Part shown: positions 5,930 to 53,472 of the stretch, piece after piece | Layout: every line of letters begins with the position of its first letter | How positions within the stretch are numbered: the first letter of the stretch is position 1 | NCBI RefSeq assembly: GCF_014199265.1 | Contig: NZ_JACIJG010000005.1 | Span: 1 to 64,000 of the forward strand | Source: Brucella daejeonensis | GTDB lineage: Bacteria; Pseudomonadota; Alphaproteobacteria; Rhizobiales; Rhizobiaceae | Length of the DNA: 64,000 nucleotides | Direction of reading: 5' to 3' | The notes under the pieces: model-generated | What the model saw: only the letters and a program-made list of their open reading frames with translations | Told to the model about the DNA's origin: nothing | The model's database searches: none | Translations under genes and position numbers: made by a program

Positions 5930-7419
5930 CATCGAAGCAGAAAATAGCTTACGGTGACGTGCCTGTCTGGGCGCGTTTTGTATTGGACATTGGTTGTCGT
6001 TATACCGTTTTCAGGCAGCTTGATATTCGCATCCTGCAGCAATGTGGCGATACGGTCGTTGGGGGCGGCGTCGCCGAACCACATGACAAGCAGGGGCGGT
6101 ATCAGATGGCCTCTGGAATCCGGGGTTTCGGGATGTATCACCTGCAAGCCCGGATCGAATAATCTTAGATTGCCCGGTATCTGGGCATTGTCGGCCAGGA
6201 TGGTCCTGAACGGTCCCTTCGCCTGAACTTCCTCGTAAAAATGTCGGTAATCAAGCTGCCCGTAAGGCGGATTGCTTGAGCCGTAAGTCAGATAATAGCC
6301 CAGAACAGGCGGAACGATGAGGGCAACCGCCGCGCTCACGGCGGCGAGGTCGATCATGGGCCGGTCGCCGGTCCGGTAGCGCGCCATCAGGCTGGCCATG
6401 AGCGCAGGCGTAAGAAACAGGACAGGCTGCAGCCAGCGATCCTTTACATTGTTTGCGCCGGTGGCAACGACGCCCGCGAGAACGATAACGATCCCCACCG
6501 CAATGAGACGCCGCAGAAATTGCTCGCCAGCGGTCAGAGGGATTGACGGAGCGGTCTTTTTTCTCCAGTGAATGAGCGCGATGACGCCTGCCACGGCAAG
6601 AGCGAGAATTGAGAACAGGAACGCGGCTTCGACCAGGCTCTCGACCCCGAGTAGCCTGTCGGAGAAAACATTTCCCGAAGCGCCGATTTCGAACTTGCTG
6701 GCGCGGGCGATGACACTCGATTTATGTGCCAGCATCCAGAACGCGGTCGGCCCGAAACAGACGGCGAAAGCGAGAACGGTGACGAGGCTCAGTTTCGAGA
6801 GCAGCACTTTCCGGTATTCCGCAACCAGCAGTCCCGTGACGATCAGCATGGCAAGAAAAAACGAGGCGTTGAACTTGCCGAGGATGGCGGCGGCCATGGC
6901 AATGCCGAGTGCGGCCGCAGAACCGGCATGGCGGGCGCGCATGTGCCACGCAAAAGCCAGAAAGGCCCACCCGCAACCTGCGGTGCCCGCTACCGAATGG
7001 GTGAGGGCGCGCTGCGATTCCCAACCGATCTGCGGGATGAGAAACAGGCCCAACATGCTGGCTGACGCCACGAGGCGCGAGAAACCCAACAGCCTCATGC
7101 CGCCATAAACGCTCAGAAACAGGCTGGCCAGAATGCTGAATTTTACAATCTGGAGCGTAAGCATGGATGTGCCGAGCACCGAAGCCGCCAGATTGGTGAT
7201 CCAGGTGTAGAGCGGCGGTTGCGATCCGCCGTAACCCCATTCGAGATAGCCTATATTGGCGAGTTGCTCAGCGTCGTCCAGGCCCGCTCCATTGGAGACG
7301 GCAGTAACGAGAATTGTCTGGAAGACGAAATAACACAGCACGAAGATGACAGCCCAAGGCAATCCAAGGAATCTTCTATCGGCTGGGGAGGCCGTGGTAG
7401 CTGGTCGGTGTGCGGTCAA
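5929..7419 (-). CDS. GT39/ArnT-like membrane glycosyltransferase
   Basis: A polytopic inner-membrane protein of about 496 residues with roughly ten to twelve hydrophobic segments. The first external loop has GAGLDDAEQLANIGYLEWGY and the following SQPPLYTW, the acidic-pair and P-P motifs of dolichyl-/undecaprenyl-phosphate sugar transferases (PMT_2/GT39; ArnT family). It would move a sugar from a lipid carrier to an envelope acceptor. The acceptor is unknown and no polysaccharide cluster flanks it. The frame is open to a TTG at 7482, but that codon lies inside a palindromic repeat; I favour the TTG at 7419, preceded by AGGG. The start is therefore uncertain. It is a monocistronic minus-strand gene converging on the entericidin gene. 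Confidence 0.8.
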   Translation of the reverse strand: MTAHRPATTASPADRRFLGLPWAVIFVLCYFVFQTILVTAVSNGAGLDDAEQLANIGYLEWGYGGSQPPLYTWITNLAASVLGTSMLTLQIVKFSILASLFLSVYGGMRLLGFSRLVASASMLGLFLIPQIGWESQRALTHSVAGTAGCGWAFLAFAWHMRARHAGSAAALGIAMAAAILGKFNASFFLAMLIVTGLLVAEYRKVLLSKLSLVTVLAFAVCFGPTAFWMLAHKSSVIARASKFEIGASGNVFSDRLLGVESLVEAAFLFSILALAVAGVIALIHWRKKTAPSIPLTAGEQFLRRLIAVGIVIVLAGVVATGANNVKDRWLQPVLFLTPALMASLMARYRTGDRPMIDLAAVSAAVALIVPPVLGYYLTYGSSNPPYGQLDYRHFYEEVQAKGPFRTILADNAQIPGNLRLFDPGLQVIHPETPDSRGHLIPPLLVMWFGDAAPNDRIATLLQDANIKLPENGITTTNVQYKTRPDRHVTVSYFLLR

Positions 7420-7453
7420 AAGCGATGCCCTGAATGATGAATTTCGCCGATTT

Positions 7454-7571
7454 AAGCTTCTTTTAAAGCGTGTTGCGTTCAATCGTATTCAGGCAACACG
7501 CTTTAAGCTTTTATTTTTACGCATGTTTTTATCCCAAAACCGGTTCCCACTTTTGGGAGACATGCTCTAGG
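7454..7571. repeat. palindromic intergenic repeat, copy 2 (composite)
   Basis: Two modules. The first is an inverted repeat with arms AAGCTT..AAAGCGTGTTGC (7454-7476) and GCAACACGCTTTAAGCTT (7493-7510). The second (about 7510-7571) contains CCCAAAACCGGTTCCCACTTTTGGGA, of which the CCCAAAA / TTTTGGG arms are complementary; it resembles the repeats at 5523 and 62850. The palindrome reaches into the open frame of the glycosyltransferase, which is why a downstream start was chosen. Confidence 0.65.
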
Positions 7572-7841
7572 CGCTGTGCATTTCACAGGATTGTGTCCAG
7601 ATTTCAATCCGGTCACTGAGAAGTCTTGTAACAATAGCTTGCGATTTTGCAACGTGGCAGGCGCAAGAGCAATGCGCAACCGTCAGGGGCGGTAGGTCGT
7701 TCCGACGTTTTGAAAACCTGCCGGTATTGAAGAGGCTGAAAGTCGGGCCTGAACGGCAAAAACCGCGCTGCCGAACGGTGCACGGTTTTGCCAGTTACGC
7801 ATGGCATCGCCGCCGAACGTTACACTGGCGGGATATACTAA

Positions 7842-21685: not shown

Positions 21686-22414
21686 GCGCGCAAATTCCAT
21701 CGCTTCTTCAACCGTCGCGACGACAGTTTCTGCCAGGACAGGCGGGCGGGCGATCATCAGGACCGGGATGAAGAGGTCGCGTGCGGCCTCGATTTTCCCG
21801 TAGGATATGCTGCCGCCGGAGTTGCGGCAGACGATCAGTCCGATCTTTCTGTCCGCGAGAAACCGCTTCTCCAATTCACGACTTTCCGGCCTTGCCAGAA
21901 CGATTTCGCAATGCGCTGGAAGCGTCACTTCGGGCGGATCGATCATGCGAAGGGTGAAATGGGCGTCCGCGCATTCGGCAAATGGAGCGATATGCTGGCG
22001 ACCGAGAGCGAGAAAGACACGTTCGCCCCTCGGGATCATGGCGGCGGCCTCGGTTTCATTTGCGACGTCGATCCAGTGATCGCCGGGCTGCCGTTGCCAG
22101 GCCGGTCGTTCGAGACGAAGCAGCGGGATGTCCGCGACCTTCGCTGCCTCGATGGCGTTCCGTGAAATACGGGTTGCATAAGGATGCGTCGCGTCGATGA
22201 TCAGGCCGAACTGACCGGCGGTCAGACAGGCCGACAACCCCTCCACGCCGCCAAAGCCGCCAACCCGCACCGAACCGGCGACGGGAGCCGGATTTGCCGT
22301 GCGTCCCGCAAGCGATGTAACCACATCGACGGAGCGGGCTTGCAGTGCGGCGGCAAGTCTCGACGCTTCCGCCGTGCCGCCGAGGATAAGTACCCTGGGG
22401 TCAGACGCGGGCAA
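21668..22414 (-). CDS. cobK: precorrin-6A reductase
   Basis: A 248-residue NADPH-dependent reductase converting precorrin-6A to precorrin-6B. The N-terminus has RVLILGGTAEASRLAAAL, the middle has LIIDATHPYATRISRNA and the C-terminal half has IGLIVCRNSGGSISYGKIEA, which mark the CobK/CbiJ family. It overlaps the preceding cbiD by 14 bp on the same strand, and converges on cobM with overlapping ends. Confidence 0.94.
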   Translation of the reverse strand: MPASDPRVLILGGTAEASRLAAALQARSVDVVTSLAGRTANPAPVAGSVRVGGFGGVEGLSACLTAGQFGLIIDATHPYATRISRNAIEAAKVADIPLLRLERPAWQRQPGDHWIDVANETEAAAMIPRGERVFLALGRQHIAPFAECADAHFTLRMIDPPEVTLPAHCEIVLARPESRELEKRFLADRKIGLIVCRNSGGSISYGKIEAARDLFIPVLMIARPPVLAETVVATVEEAMEFARSTLCF

Positions 22415-23507
22415 GGATGTTTCCCTTGCGGTCTGTCACGATGATTTCCACCGCAACGGGTGCGCCGCGCAGCGTTTCGAGGGCCGTTTCGCGTGCCTTG
22501 AGCGCAATCGGCGTTGCCATGTCGATGCCGATTGCCTGAGTCATTTCAAGGATTTCCAGCGCTGTGTTCGCAAGGAGAATCCGGTTCTTCATATCTTCCG
22601 GCGCACCGGCCTTTCGGGCGACGGTCCATAGGAAGTTTTTATCCACCTGTGAGCGGGAGGAGTGAAGATCGAGCGCGCCCTGAGCGAGCTTGGTCAGCTT
22701 GGCGAAGCCGCCGGCAATGGTGAGCTTGTCGATGGGATGTTCGCGCAGATATTTGAGTACGCCTCCGGCGAAGTCGCCCATGTCGAGAATGGCGAAGTCG
22801 GGCAGGTTGTAGAGCGCCTGTGCGGCGTCTTCCGAGGTCGAGCCGGTCGCGCCGAGCACATGATTTTGCCCGGCGGCGCGCGCAACGTCGATGCCGCGAT
22901 GGATCGAATGAATCCAGGCCGAGCAGGAGAAGGGGTGCACCACGCCCGTGGTGCCGAGAATGGAAATGCCGCCGACGATACCGAGGCGCGGATTCCATGT
23001 CTTCATGGCGATTTCCTCGCCGCCGGGTACGGATATGGTGATGACCAGATCGGCGGGGAGGCCGTATTCGGCGCATATCTGTTCGCAGATTTCCGTCATC
23101 ATGCGGCGCGGAACCGGATTGATCGCGGCTTCGCCGGGCGGAATCTGAAGTCCCGGCCGGGTGACGGTGCCCACGCCTTCGCCCGCCCGAAACTGAATGC
23201 CGGTGCCGGGTGGAGCAGGAAAAACCGTCGAGATGATTGTCGCGCCGTGAGTGACGTCGGGGTCGTCGCCCGCGTCCTTCACGATGCCCGCCATGGCATA
23301 GCCTTCGCCAAGCCCTTCATAGGCGAGCTGAAAATAGGGCACTTCACCCTTTGGCAGGATGATGCCGACAGGATCGGGAAACTCGCCGGTGATAAGCGCT
23401 GTCAGCGCTGCCTTGGTGGCGGCCGTGGCGCAGGCGCCAGTGGTCCAGCCACGCCGGAGTTCGGCTTTTTCCTGACTTTTATTCATGGGGGCGGTTTCGT
23501 CATTCAT
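22401..23507 (-). CDS. cbiD: cobalt-precorrin-5B C1-methyltransferase (CbiD)
   Basis: A 368-residue protein with the CbiD signature RRGWTTGACATAATKAAL at the N-terminus and the NPVPRRMM, GGISILGTTGVVHPFSCSAW and GGFAKLTKLAQGALDLHSSRS blocks. In the anaerobic route CbiD methylates C1 after acetaldehyde loss. In this oxygen-dependent cluster it would fill the step normally done by CobF, which is absent here. It is co-transcribed with cobK. Its 5' side faces the 163-bp tandem repeat array, whose first copy begins about 33 bp upstream of the start codon. Confidence 0.94.
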   Translation of the reverse strand: MNDETAPMNKSQEKAELRRGWTTGACATAATKAALTALITGEFPDPVGIILPKGEVPYFQLAYEGLGEGYAMAGIVKDAGDDPDVTHGATIISTVFPAPPGTGIQFRAGEGVGTVTRPGLQIPPGEAAINPVPRRMMTEICEQICAEYGLPADLVITISVPGGEEIAMKTWNPRLGIVGGISILGTTGVVHPFSCSAWIHSIHRGIDVARAAGQNHVLGATGSTSEDAAQALYNLPDFAILDMGDFAGGVLKYLREHPIDKLTIAGGFAKLTKLAQGALDLHSSRSQVDKNFLWTVARKAGAPEDMKNRILLANTALEILEMTQAIGIDMATPIALKARETALETLRGAPVAVEIIVTDRKGNILARV

Positions 23508-23540: not shown

Positions 23541-24033
23541 CTAGTGGTCTGATTCCGACATTTGCATTCCTCGGATACAGGCGTTGAGCAAATGTCGGAA
23601 TCGAAAAGACCACTAGTCACTTTATGTATCTAGTGGATTTTTCGAATTTGACGTTTGAAACAGCATCTCATTCAGTCGGGATCCAAACGTCAAATTCAAT
23701 CCACTAGTGGTCTGATTCCGACATTTGCATTCCTCGGATACAGGCGTTGAGCAAATGTCGGAATCGAAAAGACCACTAGTCACTTTATGTATCTAGTGGA
23801 TTTTTCGAATTTGACGTTTGAAACAGCATCTCATTCAGTCGGGATCCAAACGTCAAATTCAATCCACTAGTGGTCTGATTCCGACATTTGCATTCCTCGG
23901 ATACAGGCGTTGAGCAAATGTCGGAATCGAAAAGACCACTAGTCACTTTATGTATCTAGTGGATTTTTCGAATTTGACGTTTGAAACAGCATCTCATTCA
24001 GTCGGGATTCAAACGTCAAATTCAATCCACTAG
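23541..24033. repeat. three tandem 163-bp repeats, each with two imperfect hairpins
   Basis: Units start at 23541, 23704 and 23867, each at a CTAGTGG, and the array closes with a final CTAG at 24030-24033. The copies appear identical except for one C-to-T at 24009. Each unit holds hairpin 1 (arms 23541-23565 and 23588-23616, CTAGTGGTCT..GATTCCGACATTTGC) and hairpin 2 (arms 23630-23657 and 23684-23707, CTAGTGGATT..GAATTTGACGTTTG). In both, one arm has four extra bases (a TTTC-like insertion). The array occupies most of the space between divergent cbiD and cobA. No open frame is credible inside it. Confidence 0.93.
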
Positions 24034-24131
24034 AGCGGTTCCCTCACAAATGGAATCGCTGGCTCTGGCCCTTTGTTTCGTCGCATTGTCCAATTGCTGG
24101 AAATGCCCTGGAGTAAATTTGGTTGACGGGA

Positions 24132-25013
24132 ATGAGCAAGGCTGAAGACGCTGCCGCGTGCGTGATCGCGAAAAGCAGGGTGGTTTTGCCCGCGATGGAA
24201 CCCGGCCATGTCTGGCTTGTCGGCGCGGGCCCCGGCGATCCCGGTCTTCTGACCCTTCACGCCGTCAATGCTCTCCAGCAGGCGGATGTCATCGTTTATG
24301 ACGCGCTGGTGGATGATGCCTGCCTTTCGCTCAGGAATGCCGACGCCGTTCTGGAATATGCGGGCAAGCGCGGCGGCAAGCCCTCGGCGAAACAGCGCGA
24401 TATTTCTCTCCGGCTGGTCGAACTCGCGAAACAGGGCAGGAAGGTCCTGCGGCTCAAGGGTGGAGATCCTTTTGTTTTCGGACGCGGAGCCGAGGAGGCG
24501 CTGACGCTTGTCGAACACGGTGTTCCATTCCGTATCGTGCCGGGCGTTACCGCCGGAATTGGCGGGCTTGCCTATGCGGGCATTGCCGCAACCCATCGCG
24601 ATATCAACCAGTCGGTGACATTCCTGACGGGCCACGATGCGAGCGGATCGATGCCGGATGGCATCGACTGGGCCGGGATTGCGAGATCGTCGCCGGTCAT
24701 CGTCATGTATATGGCAATGAAACATATCGATCTTATTGCTGCGCGACTGATCGAGGCCGGGCGTGCGCCGGACGAACCGGTCGCATTCGTTTGCAACGCG
24801 AGCCTGCCGAACCAGACGGTTCTCGAAACGACCCTGTCGCGGGCCGCTTCCGATGTTGCGGCAGCAGGTCTCAATCCGCCGGCAATCGTTGTCGTCGGTG
24901 AAGTGGTTCGCCTGCGTGCGGGGCTGGACTGGATGGGAGCGATGGCGGGGAAAATTCTGACGAGCAACCCGCTGGGCCGACGTATCAATGACACGGGAGT
25001 GCAGAAGGCATGA
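24132..25013 (+). CDS. cobA: uroporphyrinogen-III C-methyltransferase
   Basis: A 293-residue SAM-dependent enzyme methylating uroporphyrinogen III at C2 and C7 to precorrin-2, the entry to the corrin and siroheme branches. VWLVGAGPGDPGLLTLHA, VLRLKGGDPFVFGRGAEE and PVIVMYMAMKH are the standard blocks. No CysG-type dehydrogenase/ferrochelatase extension is present. The frame is open to a TTG at 24123; the ATG at 24132 is preferred. It starts about 100 bp after the tandem repeat array and overlaps cobB by four bases (ATGA). Confidence 0.95.
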   Translation: MSKAEDAAACVIAKSRVVLPAMEPGHVWLVGAGPGDPGLLTLHAVNALQQADVIVYDALVDDACLSLRNADAVLEYAGKRGGKPSAKQRDISLRLVELAKQGRKVLRLKGGDPFVFGRGAEEALTLVEHGVPFRIVPGVTAGIGGLAYAGIAATHRDINQSVTFLTGHDASGSMPDGIDWAGIARSSPVIVMYMAMKHIDLIAARLIEAGRAPDEPVAFVCNASLPNQTVLETTLSRAASDVAAAGLNPPAIVVVGEVVRLRAGLDWMGAMAGKILTSNPLGRRINDTGVQKA

Positions 25014-50720: not shown

Positions 50721-50795
50721 TGGTACGCCCAAGGGGAATCGAACCCCTGTCTGCGCCGTGAAAGGGCGCTGTCCTAACCGCTAGACGATGGGCGC
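50721..50795 (-). tRNA. tRNA-Glu (UUC), copy 1
   Basis: The minus strand folds as a full tRNA: acceptor GCGCCCA / TGGGCGT, D arm GTCTAGCGGTTAGGAC, anticodon arm GCGCC-CTTTCAC-GGCGC (anticodon TTC), T arm AGGGGTTCGATTCCCCT and an encoded CCA. It is adjacent to the integrase pseudogene and presumed to be the island's insertion site. Confidence 0.97.
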
Positions 50796-50943: not shown

Positions 50944-51018
50944 TGGTACGCCCAAGGGGAATCGAACCCCTGTCTGCGCCGTGAAAGGGCGCTGTCCTAA
51001 CCGCTAGACGATGGGCGC
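50944..51018 (-). tRNA. tRNA-Glu (UUC), copy 2
   Basis: Identical over 75 nt to copy 1, with encoded CCA, 223 bp away on the same strand. The upstream flanks of both copies are also alike for about 60 bp (GTCGCTGGTGTG, GGGCTTATA, TCAGGAA), so the pair arose by a local duplication. Probably the intact transcription unit of the two. Confidence 0.97.
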
Positions 51019-53397: not shown

Positions 53398-53472
53398 GTG
53401 GTCTCTTCGATTCCGATATTGGCTCGGCACCTTTATCAGAGGGATGCAAATGTCGGAATCAGACCACGCTAG
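53398..53472. repeat. degenerate relative of hairpin 1 of the 163-bp repeat
   Basis: GTGGTCTCTTCGATTCCGAT ... then GCAAATGTCGGAATCAGACC followed by ACGCTAG. The right arm equals the reverse complement of the first arm of the repeats at 23541, and the left arm carries the same 4-base insertion (TTCG) position. Thus it is one copy of the family in opposite orientation, with a different loop. Confidence 0.75.

What the first reader, a model, noticed from the sequence alone, without database searches (positions are those of the whole stretch)
23541..24033. Threefold 163-bp tandem repeat with paired asymmetric hairpins between cbiD and cobA
Three copies, differing at a single base, each carry two long inverted repeats bounded by CTAGTGG. 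In both hairpins one arm has a 4-base insertion at a similar place, so the two hairpins themselves look like diverged copies of one design. The array fills the divergent cbiD/cobA control region. Near-perfect identity suggests recent amplification or ongoing conversion. It might be a palindromic mobile unit or affect transcription of both operons.
Basis: seen in the sequence. Interest (0 to 1): 0.75.

Follow-up and report, generated by a model that had tools for sequence, protein, structure and literature searches.

The report
Self-stacking two-hairpin mobile DNA element
A 163-base piece of non-coding DNA that folds into two hairpins is scattered through the genomes of one bacterial genus, appears to jump into the rare sequence CTAG and leave CTAG on both sides, and stands three times in a row between two vitamin B12 genes.

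Summary
In detail: three head-to-tail 163-bp copies at 23541-24033, each with two bulged hairpins; two are identical and one differs at one base. It is not a one-off. The own genome (Brucella/Ochrobactrum group) has 33 near-full-length matches, 32 of 35 genomes of the genus have it, and 0 of 25 genomes of other genera. Anatomy: CTAG-hairpin A-CTAG-13 nt-CTAG-hairpin B-CTAG. A resembles B turned round, the 4-nt bulges lie on the two inner arms, and paired bases covary. A second family (about 63% identical) shares the layout and sits nested exactly in an internal CTAG of one unit. In 15 of 30 relatives' cbiD/cobA gaps there is only a single C[C/T]AG; other lineages carry units there, in either orientation. 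I read it as a non-autonomous miniature mobile element that lands in the rare tetramer CTAG, which is then present at both ends, so elements stack and nest. This trimer grew by local duplication or conversion. The moving enzyme was not found: no IS200/RAYT-type transposase in the own genome; a CTAG-targeting IS5-type element is only a candidate. Nearest known kinds: Bru-RS, RIME, REPINs, CTAG-duplicating MITEs. Copy number rests on a draft assembly; transcription effects are untested.

The parts
23541..24033 (+). Array of three head-to-tail 163-bp units (23541-23703, 23704-23866, 23867-24029) plus closing CTAG (24030-24033)
23541..23616 (+). Hairpin A of unit 1 (same in 23704-23779 and 23867-23942); 4 extra bases on its right (inner) arm
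23617..23629 (+). 13-nt spacer between the CTAGs of hairpins A and B (also 23780-23792, 23943-23955)
23630..23707 (+). Hairpin B of unit 1 (also 23793-23870, 23956-24033); 4 extra bases on its left (inner) arm; its last CTAG is the first CTAG of the next unit
24034..24110 (.). About 75 further bases between the array and the conserved cobA leader, absent from the empty sites of relatives; origin unknown
   Evidence: empty sites; no second copy in held loci; no inverted repeat
22401..23507 (-). cbiD, divergent neighbour
24132..25013 (+). cobA (uroporphyrinogen-III C-methyltransferase), divergent neighbour; ATG start chosen by me
53398..53467 (-). Decayed single hairpin of type A elsewhere in the window

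Best explanation
Each 163-bp unit is a non-autonomous miniature mobile element made of two related, oppositely turned, bulged hairpins. It inserts into the tetramer CTAG (more loosely YTAG or C[C/T]AG), and CTAG is then found at both of its ends. Shown: dispersal, CTAG borders, occupied versus empty sites, nesting in CTAG, covarying arms. Inferred: a transposase supplied in trans recognises the hairpin ends and duplicates TA or CTAG, as IS711 and the CTAG-duplicating MITEPsy1 are reported to do. Because every insertion leaves CTAG on both sides, and a unit carries two more inside, the next unit, the sister family or an IS can land in the same spot, giving arrays and mosaics. At cbiD/cobA one unit landed in a short divergent gap and was then multiplied locally to three copies by unequal recombination, slippage or conversion (inferred from the near-identity of the copies). 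The gap is now 624 bp, so promoter elements shared by the two genes, if any, have been pulled apart (inferred).
For: 33 near-full-length matches in the own genome; 32 of 35 genomes of the genus and 0 of 25 of other genera. Of 74 distinct near-full-length units in held loci, 60 have CTAG at the left end and 56 at the right, while the bases further out are mixed; CTAG is rare (30 in the window, 10 of them in the array; 72 expected). At cbiD/cobA 7 of 30 readable genomes have units or half units in two orientations, 15 of 30 have one C[C/T]AG, and the occupied rows fall in four separate places of a cbiD tree. In L034 a second two-hairpin family lies exactly at the CTAG between A and the spacer, with CTAG at both its ends. 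97.0% of pair cells pair and 16 of 49 pairs have changes on both sides in 68 units, 0 of 500 shuffles as high. 26 of 28 own loci examined lie between predicted genes, 1 overlaps a gene end and 1 is at a contig edge. Trimer copies differ by 0-1 from each other and 5 or more from others.
Against: No autonomous partner with matching ends was found. The candidate IS type does not track unit numbers: the own genome has one weak PF13340 match but many units, G026 has 12 matches and no unit. No insertion was seen within one species, so movement today is not shown. Four occupied lineages could also reflect an old insertion with several exact losses. Two other empty-site tests were not clean: at L034 the flanks are too diverged to show a CTAG, and at L009 only one of four orthologues has a YTAG there. 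CTAG versus TA duplication cannot be told apart. Covariation can also come from template-switch repair of hairpins and from relatedness of the rows.
Confidence: 0.75

Rival explanations
1. The hairpins are host-maintained structural elements (RNA hairpins, terminators, insulators or protein-binding sites), kept because they serve the neighbouring genes and spread mainly by recombination.
For: Strong hairpins in DNA and RNA; covarying arms and a nearly invariant core of hairpin B; mostly intergenic positions.
Against: The cbiD/cobA gap is empty in 15 of 30 genomes; both orientations occur at one site; exact CTAG borders and nesting; the scan found no terminator-like site within the array and no promoter-like site in the region.
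Confidence: 0.12
2. It is a REPIN-like pair of palindromes moved by a Y1 (RAYT/IS200-type) transposase acting on single-stranded bulged hairpins.
For: Paired, oppositely turned hairpins with a bulge and a conserved tetramer at the foot; bulge and GTAG matter for REP cleavage in E. coli (PMC8266576, passages).
Against: PF01797 has 0 matches in the own genome and matches in only 4 of 35 of the genus, while units are in 32 of 35; the tetramer is CTAG, at both ends of each hairpin.
Confidence: 0.07
3. It is the Ochrobactrum form of a described repeat (Bru-RS1/2 of Brucella or RIME1 of rhizobia).
For: Same genus as Bru-RS in current taxonomy; palindromic, intergenic, and a target of IS elements at YTAR (PMC3163539, PMC2266754, passages). 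RIME1 as two palindromes is recalled.
Against: Length 163 bp against 103-106 bp. Sequences of Bru-RS and RIME1 could not be obtained, so this is open, not rejected.
Confidence: 0.25
4. The number three, or the tandem order, is an assembly artefact.
For: 55-contig draft; at least 7 contig ends lie inside units. Arrays of full units are seen only in this genome: 91 matches in 8 relatives show no two 163 bp apart.
Against: Copy 3 has a base of its own. Four more arrays of full units exist, and in L011 the two copies differ by several bases and each is closer to a unit elsewhere.
Confidence: 0.2

Closest known systems
Bru-RS1 / Bru-RS2 (Halling and Bricker 1994; known here only through citing papers)
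   Same: Palindromic repeats of the same genus, in many copies, entered by IS711 at YTAR sites
   Different: 103-106 bp against 163 bp; sequence not available for comparison
RIME1 of rhizobia (Osteras et al. 1995; not held, recalled)
   Same: Intergenic element with two palindromes (recalled)
   Different: About 106 bp (recalled); sequence not compared
REPINs / RAYT-associated REPs
   Same: Two palindromes in opposite orientation; bulge and conserved tetramer in the E. coli type (passages)
   Different: No Y1 transposase in the own genome; CTAG at both feet of each hairpin instead of one GTAG; arms far longer
MITEPsy1 of Pseudomonas syringae
   Same: Small non-autonomous element reported to duplicate CTAG or YTAA on insertion (PMC3189936, passages)
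   Different: 100 nt with 18-nt terminal repeats; its terminal repeats as printed differ from arms A and B
IS5-family elements with CTAG at both ends (L334, L335)
   Same: CTAG on both sides; the end of a relative abuts units at two contig ends of the own genome
   Different: About 0.85 kb with an annotated transposase gene; terminal repeats unrelated to arms A and B

Membership tests
MITE-like non-autonomous element | Short, dispersed, many copies, no gene of its own | tested here: met
   163 bp, 33 near-full-length matches in the own genome
MITE-like non-autonomous element | Terminal inverted repeats | tested here: met
   Left arm of A and right arm of B are imperfect inverted repeats (15 of 22 bases after CTAG identical); each hairpin is also inverted in itself
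MITE-like non-autonomous element | Target-site duplication | tested here: inconclusive
   One C[C/T]AG when empty and CTAG-like at both ends when filled; TA and CTAG duplication cannot be told apart, and a copy carrying its own CTAG at one end is not excluded
MITE-like non-autonomous element | Autonomous partner with the same ends | tested here: not met
   None among arm matches in the own genome nor in 299 held sequences; parts of the draft are masked or missing, so the search is incomplete. I therefore call it MITE-like, not a MITE of a named IS
REPIN / RAYT system | Cognate Y1 (TnpA-REP) transposase in the genome | tested here: not met
   PF01797: 0 in own genome, 4 of 35 in the genus
REPIN / RAYT system | GTAG or CGTC at one foot of the palindrome | tested here: not met
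   CTAG at both feet
Bru-RS1/2 | Match to the published consensus | not testable with these tools
   Paper not held
Bru-RS1/2 | Unit length 103-106 bp | tested here: not met
   163 bp against 103-106 bp
RIME1 | Match to the published sequence | not testable with these tools
   Paper not held

The most novel reading that the evidence does not exclude
A genus-wide class of hairpin-pair elements, at least two families with one shared architecture (four CTAGs, 13-nt spacer, bulges on both inner arms, 167 bp with its CTAGs), is moved by a still unknown enzyme that reads hairpin shape more than sequence and leaves its own rare target restored. CTAG sites then act as permanent docking ports where non-coding mosaics accumulate between genes, without a Y1 transposase.
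Probability: 0.22. Interest if true: 0.75.

Novelty: new variant of a known kind. Interest (0 to 1): 0.55.

Why it matters
Small palindromic repeats are common in bacteria, but how most of them move is unknown. This family gives a clean test bed: sharp borders, one rare target tetramer, empty and occupied states of the same gap in 30 genomes, a nested insertion that gives the order of events, and two families with the same bulge layout. Insertion at a CTAG that overlaps a stop codon can leave the protein intact, because TAG is kept. If the array separates promoters shared by cbiD and cobA, the relatives offer natural controls for its effect on B12 gene expression.

Tried and rejected
RAYT/IS200-type mobilisation: rejected for lack of Y1 transposases. 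IS630-type mobilisation: three fragmentary DDE_3 matches in the own genome, two over the cut-off; not searched in the rest of the genus. IS427-type (PF13340): matches in 34 of 35 genomes, counts not following unit counts; kept only as a candidate. An autonomous element with the same ends: not found; the scan did show CTAG-flanked ends unrelated to A/B in two fetched IS loci (L287, L295). Rfam at gathering scores: nothing in the array. Phages: no match. Plasmids: one record, a 1-Mb replicon of Ochrobactrum quorumnocens. Promoter/terminator scans: no signal in the array. Further empty-site tests of limited use: L034 flanks absent-but-diverged; L178 searched but its loci not examined; L026 without an orthologue. 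The bases right of the array have no second copy in held loci and no inverted repeat, so I could not name them.

Error made and corrected: cobA was translated out of frame, so intergenic lengths printed there run into cobA in many rows. One search repeats the measurement in frame; the bases read at the site are unaffected. Where the cobA match starts at residue 14-19 the lengths are approximate. In one search the left gene of L001 was extended too far by the scoring.

Literature: searches gave no listing that I recognised as describing this element; most papers were seen as listings only, and most subscription papers are not held.

Full report
What is there. The window is the first 64 kb of contig 5 of a 4.64-Mb, 55-contig draft genome. 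It belongs to the Brucella group in the wide sense (Ochrobactrum): the nearest named cbiD is that of Brucella pseudintermedia, 93% identical. At 23541-24033 there are three head-to-tail copies of a 163-bp unit; copies 1 and 2 are identical and copy 3 has one different base. The unit reads CTAG-hairpin A-CTAG-13-nt spacer-CTAG-hairpin B-CTAG, the last CTAG being the first of the next copy. As single strands both hairpins form, with a 4-nt bulge each (DNA -40.7 kcal/mol against a shuffled mean of -14.8; RNA -66.4 against -34.4). A resembles B in reverse orientation (about 73%). The bulge sits on the right arm of A and the left arm of B, that is on both inner arms, so the unit is roughly mirror-symmetric.

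Gene setting. The left neighbour is cbiD (- strand) and the right one cobA (+ strand), by curated models. Measured in frame there are 624 bp between the start codons here. Of the 15 relatives with an empty site, 10 have 58 bp and 5 have roughly 43-50 bp, approximate because the cobA match starts late.

Dispersal. The own genome gives 33 near-full-length matches (80-100% identity), the three here included. Among the 40 own loci mapped, 9 show B only and 2 A only, and at least four of these are cut by contig ends. Of the 60 genomes searched (own included), 32 have a match at E <= 0.001: 32 of 35 of this genus and 0 of 25 of other genera. No phage record matched and one plasmid record did. In 8 relatives, 7 of them in six contigs or fewer, 91 matches at E <= 1e-9 include no two that lie 163 bp apart, whereas the own genome has five arrays of full units, each with its units in one orientation. 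At least 7 contig ends of the own genome lie inside units, so more arrays may be hidden.

Borders. Among 74 distinct near-full-length units with readable flanks in held loci (best matches of several genomes, not a full census), the left tetramer is CTAG in 60 and the right one in 56; the others are mostly one-base variants, and the next bases outward are mixed. CTAG is rare here: 30 in the window, 10 of them in the array, 72 expected.

Empty and occupied sites. cbiD was matched in 34 of 35 genomes; the gap could be read in 30, and G001, G004, G013, G026 and G032 were not read. Of the 30, 7 have recognisable units or half units (own; L166 and L168 with A+B; L147 and L160 in the opposite orientation; L150 and L158 B only), 3 carry only CTAGTGGATC, ambiguous between a remnant and substitution, 15 are empty with one C[C/T]AG, and 5 have a different gap of about 36 bp. 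Two named loci (L057, L058) have cbiD identical to genomes already counted. Aligned, L165 has a single CTAG where L166 has CTAG...CCAG around the unit, and L153 has CCAG where L158 and L160 have CTAG...CTAG. L158 lacks exactly the spacer and A that L160 has, between two CCACTAG repeats, so half units can arise by deletion. On a cbiD tree the occupied rows fall in four separate places with empty rows between. With both orientations present, repeated hits on one site are likely, though an old insertion with several exact losses is not excluded. At a second site (L009) the unit's CTAG supplies the stop codon of the gene on its left; four orthologues (71-73% identical) stop at the same codon, one with TTAG, two with TTTAA and one with ATATAA, so the protein end is kept but a CTAG target is not directly shown. 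Five other own loci also have the tetramer at a predicted gene end (L015, L016, L017, L025, L026), by ORF scoring only, plus a weak one (L021). At L034 relatives lack the elements, but the flanks are too diverged to read the target.

Nesting and a sister family. In L034 (G000:C3) hairpin A is followed by a different two-hairpin element of 167 bp with its CTAGs, then by the normal spacer and hairpin B. Where an uninterrupted unit has one CTAG, this one has CTAG at both ends of the insert. The insert belongs to a second dispersed family: 8 full copies listed in the own genome and full or nearly full copies listed in at least 13 others, in a capped list. It has a 13-nt spacer and 3-4 extra bases on both inner arms (read from the sequence). 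Aligned to the first family in reverse complement it gives 108 identities in 172 columns, score 131 (forward 107 in 180, score 111), against a mean of 54 and maximum of 78 in 500 shuffles; these shuffles do not keep palindromes, so the significance is overstated. Its best DNA fold pairs the four CTAGTG arms crosswise in a cloverleaf.

Persistence of the shape. In 68 distinct units 97.0% of base-pair cells pair, 16 of 49 pairs have changes on both sides, and 0 of 500 shuffles reach these values; with partners slid by 1-3 columns 23-44% pair. Relatedness of the rows can inflate the shuffle test, and hairpins can be kept matched by template-switch repair, so this shows that the shape persists, not which process keeps it.

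How arrays grow. The three copies here differ by 0-1 from each other and by 5 or more from every other unit compared, and the L020 pair behaves alike (2 differences): local duplication or conversion. In L011 the two copies are each closer to a unit elsewhere (1 and 2 differences) than to each other: separate insertion side by side, or conversion. The L015 and L019 pairs are ambiguous.

What moves it. The Y1 family is absent from the own genome and found in 4 of 35. DDE_3 appears there as three fragments. PF13340 gives one weak match in the own genome and matches in 34 of 35; G026 has 12 and no unit. No element with ends like A or B was found in 299 held sequences. At two contig ends (C17 start, C28 end) an identical repeat end of 95 bases abuts CTAG-spacer-CTAG-B where hairpin A is expected. 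That end has relatives in 70 plasmid records, 55 of them Rhizobium; 4 of the 20 listed carry an IS5-family transposase label, and the two inspected have CTAG at both ends of the element. So an IS with the same target adjoins these units, but its ends are unrelated to A and B. I take a transposase of this target type acting in trans as the most likely mover, at about 30%.

Known relatives. IS711 duplicates TA at YTAR and in one isolate entered a Bru-RS1 (PMC3163539, passages; also PMC2266754, passages). MITEPsy1 is reported to duplicate CTAG or YTAA (PMC3189936, passages). Bru-RS is given as 103-106 bp (PMC2267715 and PMC10800456, passages). GTAG and CGTC are the tags of most REPs, and CGTC repeats are reported missing in Brucellaceae (PMC3733652, abstract and passages). 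E. coli REPs need bulge and GTAG for cleavage (PMC8266576, passages). S. meliloti RIMEs are only mentioned in PMC2245857 (passages). Bru-RS and RIME1 sequences could not be obtained, so kinship with them is open.

Verdict. It is a new variant of a known kind, a small palindromic mobile repeat, notable for its paired hairpins with mirror-placed bulges and for ending in its own rare target. Regulatory effects and the moving enzyme remain open.

Noticed in passing
L034:1073-1239 (G000:C3): A second dispersed two-hairpin family of 167 bp with the same layout, nested in a unit of the first family; 8 full copies listed in the own genome.
   Followed up: partly
L037:1-95 and L042:1086-1180: The same repeat end, with IS5-type relatives on rhizobial plasmids, abuts CTAG-spacer-CTAG-B at two contig ends where hairpin A is expected.
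   Followed up: partly
window 24034-24110: About 75 bases between the array and the cobA leader that the empty sites of relatives lack; no second copy in held loci.
   Followed up: partly
L144, L145, L157 (cbiD/cobA gap): CTAGTGGATC without any hairpin, in three rows that are not one clade on the cbiD tree: excision remnants or substitutions.
   Followed up: partly
L147 cbiD/cobA gap: After the B-A unit come further inverted-repeat-like stretches starting at CTAG and ending in CTAG/TTAG, perhaps other repeat families at the same site.
   Followed up: no
window 53398-53467: A decayed single A-type hairpin after a short gene.
   Followed up: partly
window 7414-7577: Match on the - strand to Brucella sRNA CI27 (RF02600) exactly at its gathering score of 59.8 bits, with a CTAG at 7567-7570.
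   Followed up: no
window 50724-50795 and 50947-51018: Two tRNA matches with identical scores 223 bp apart on the - strand.
   Followed up: no
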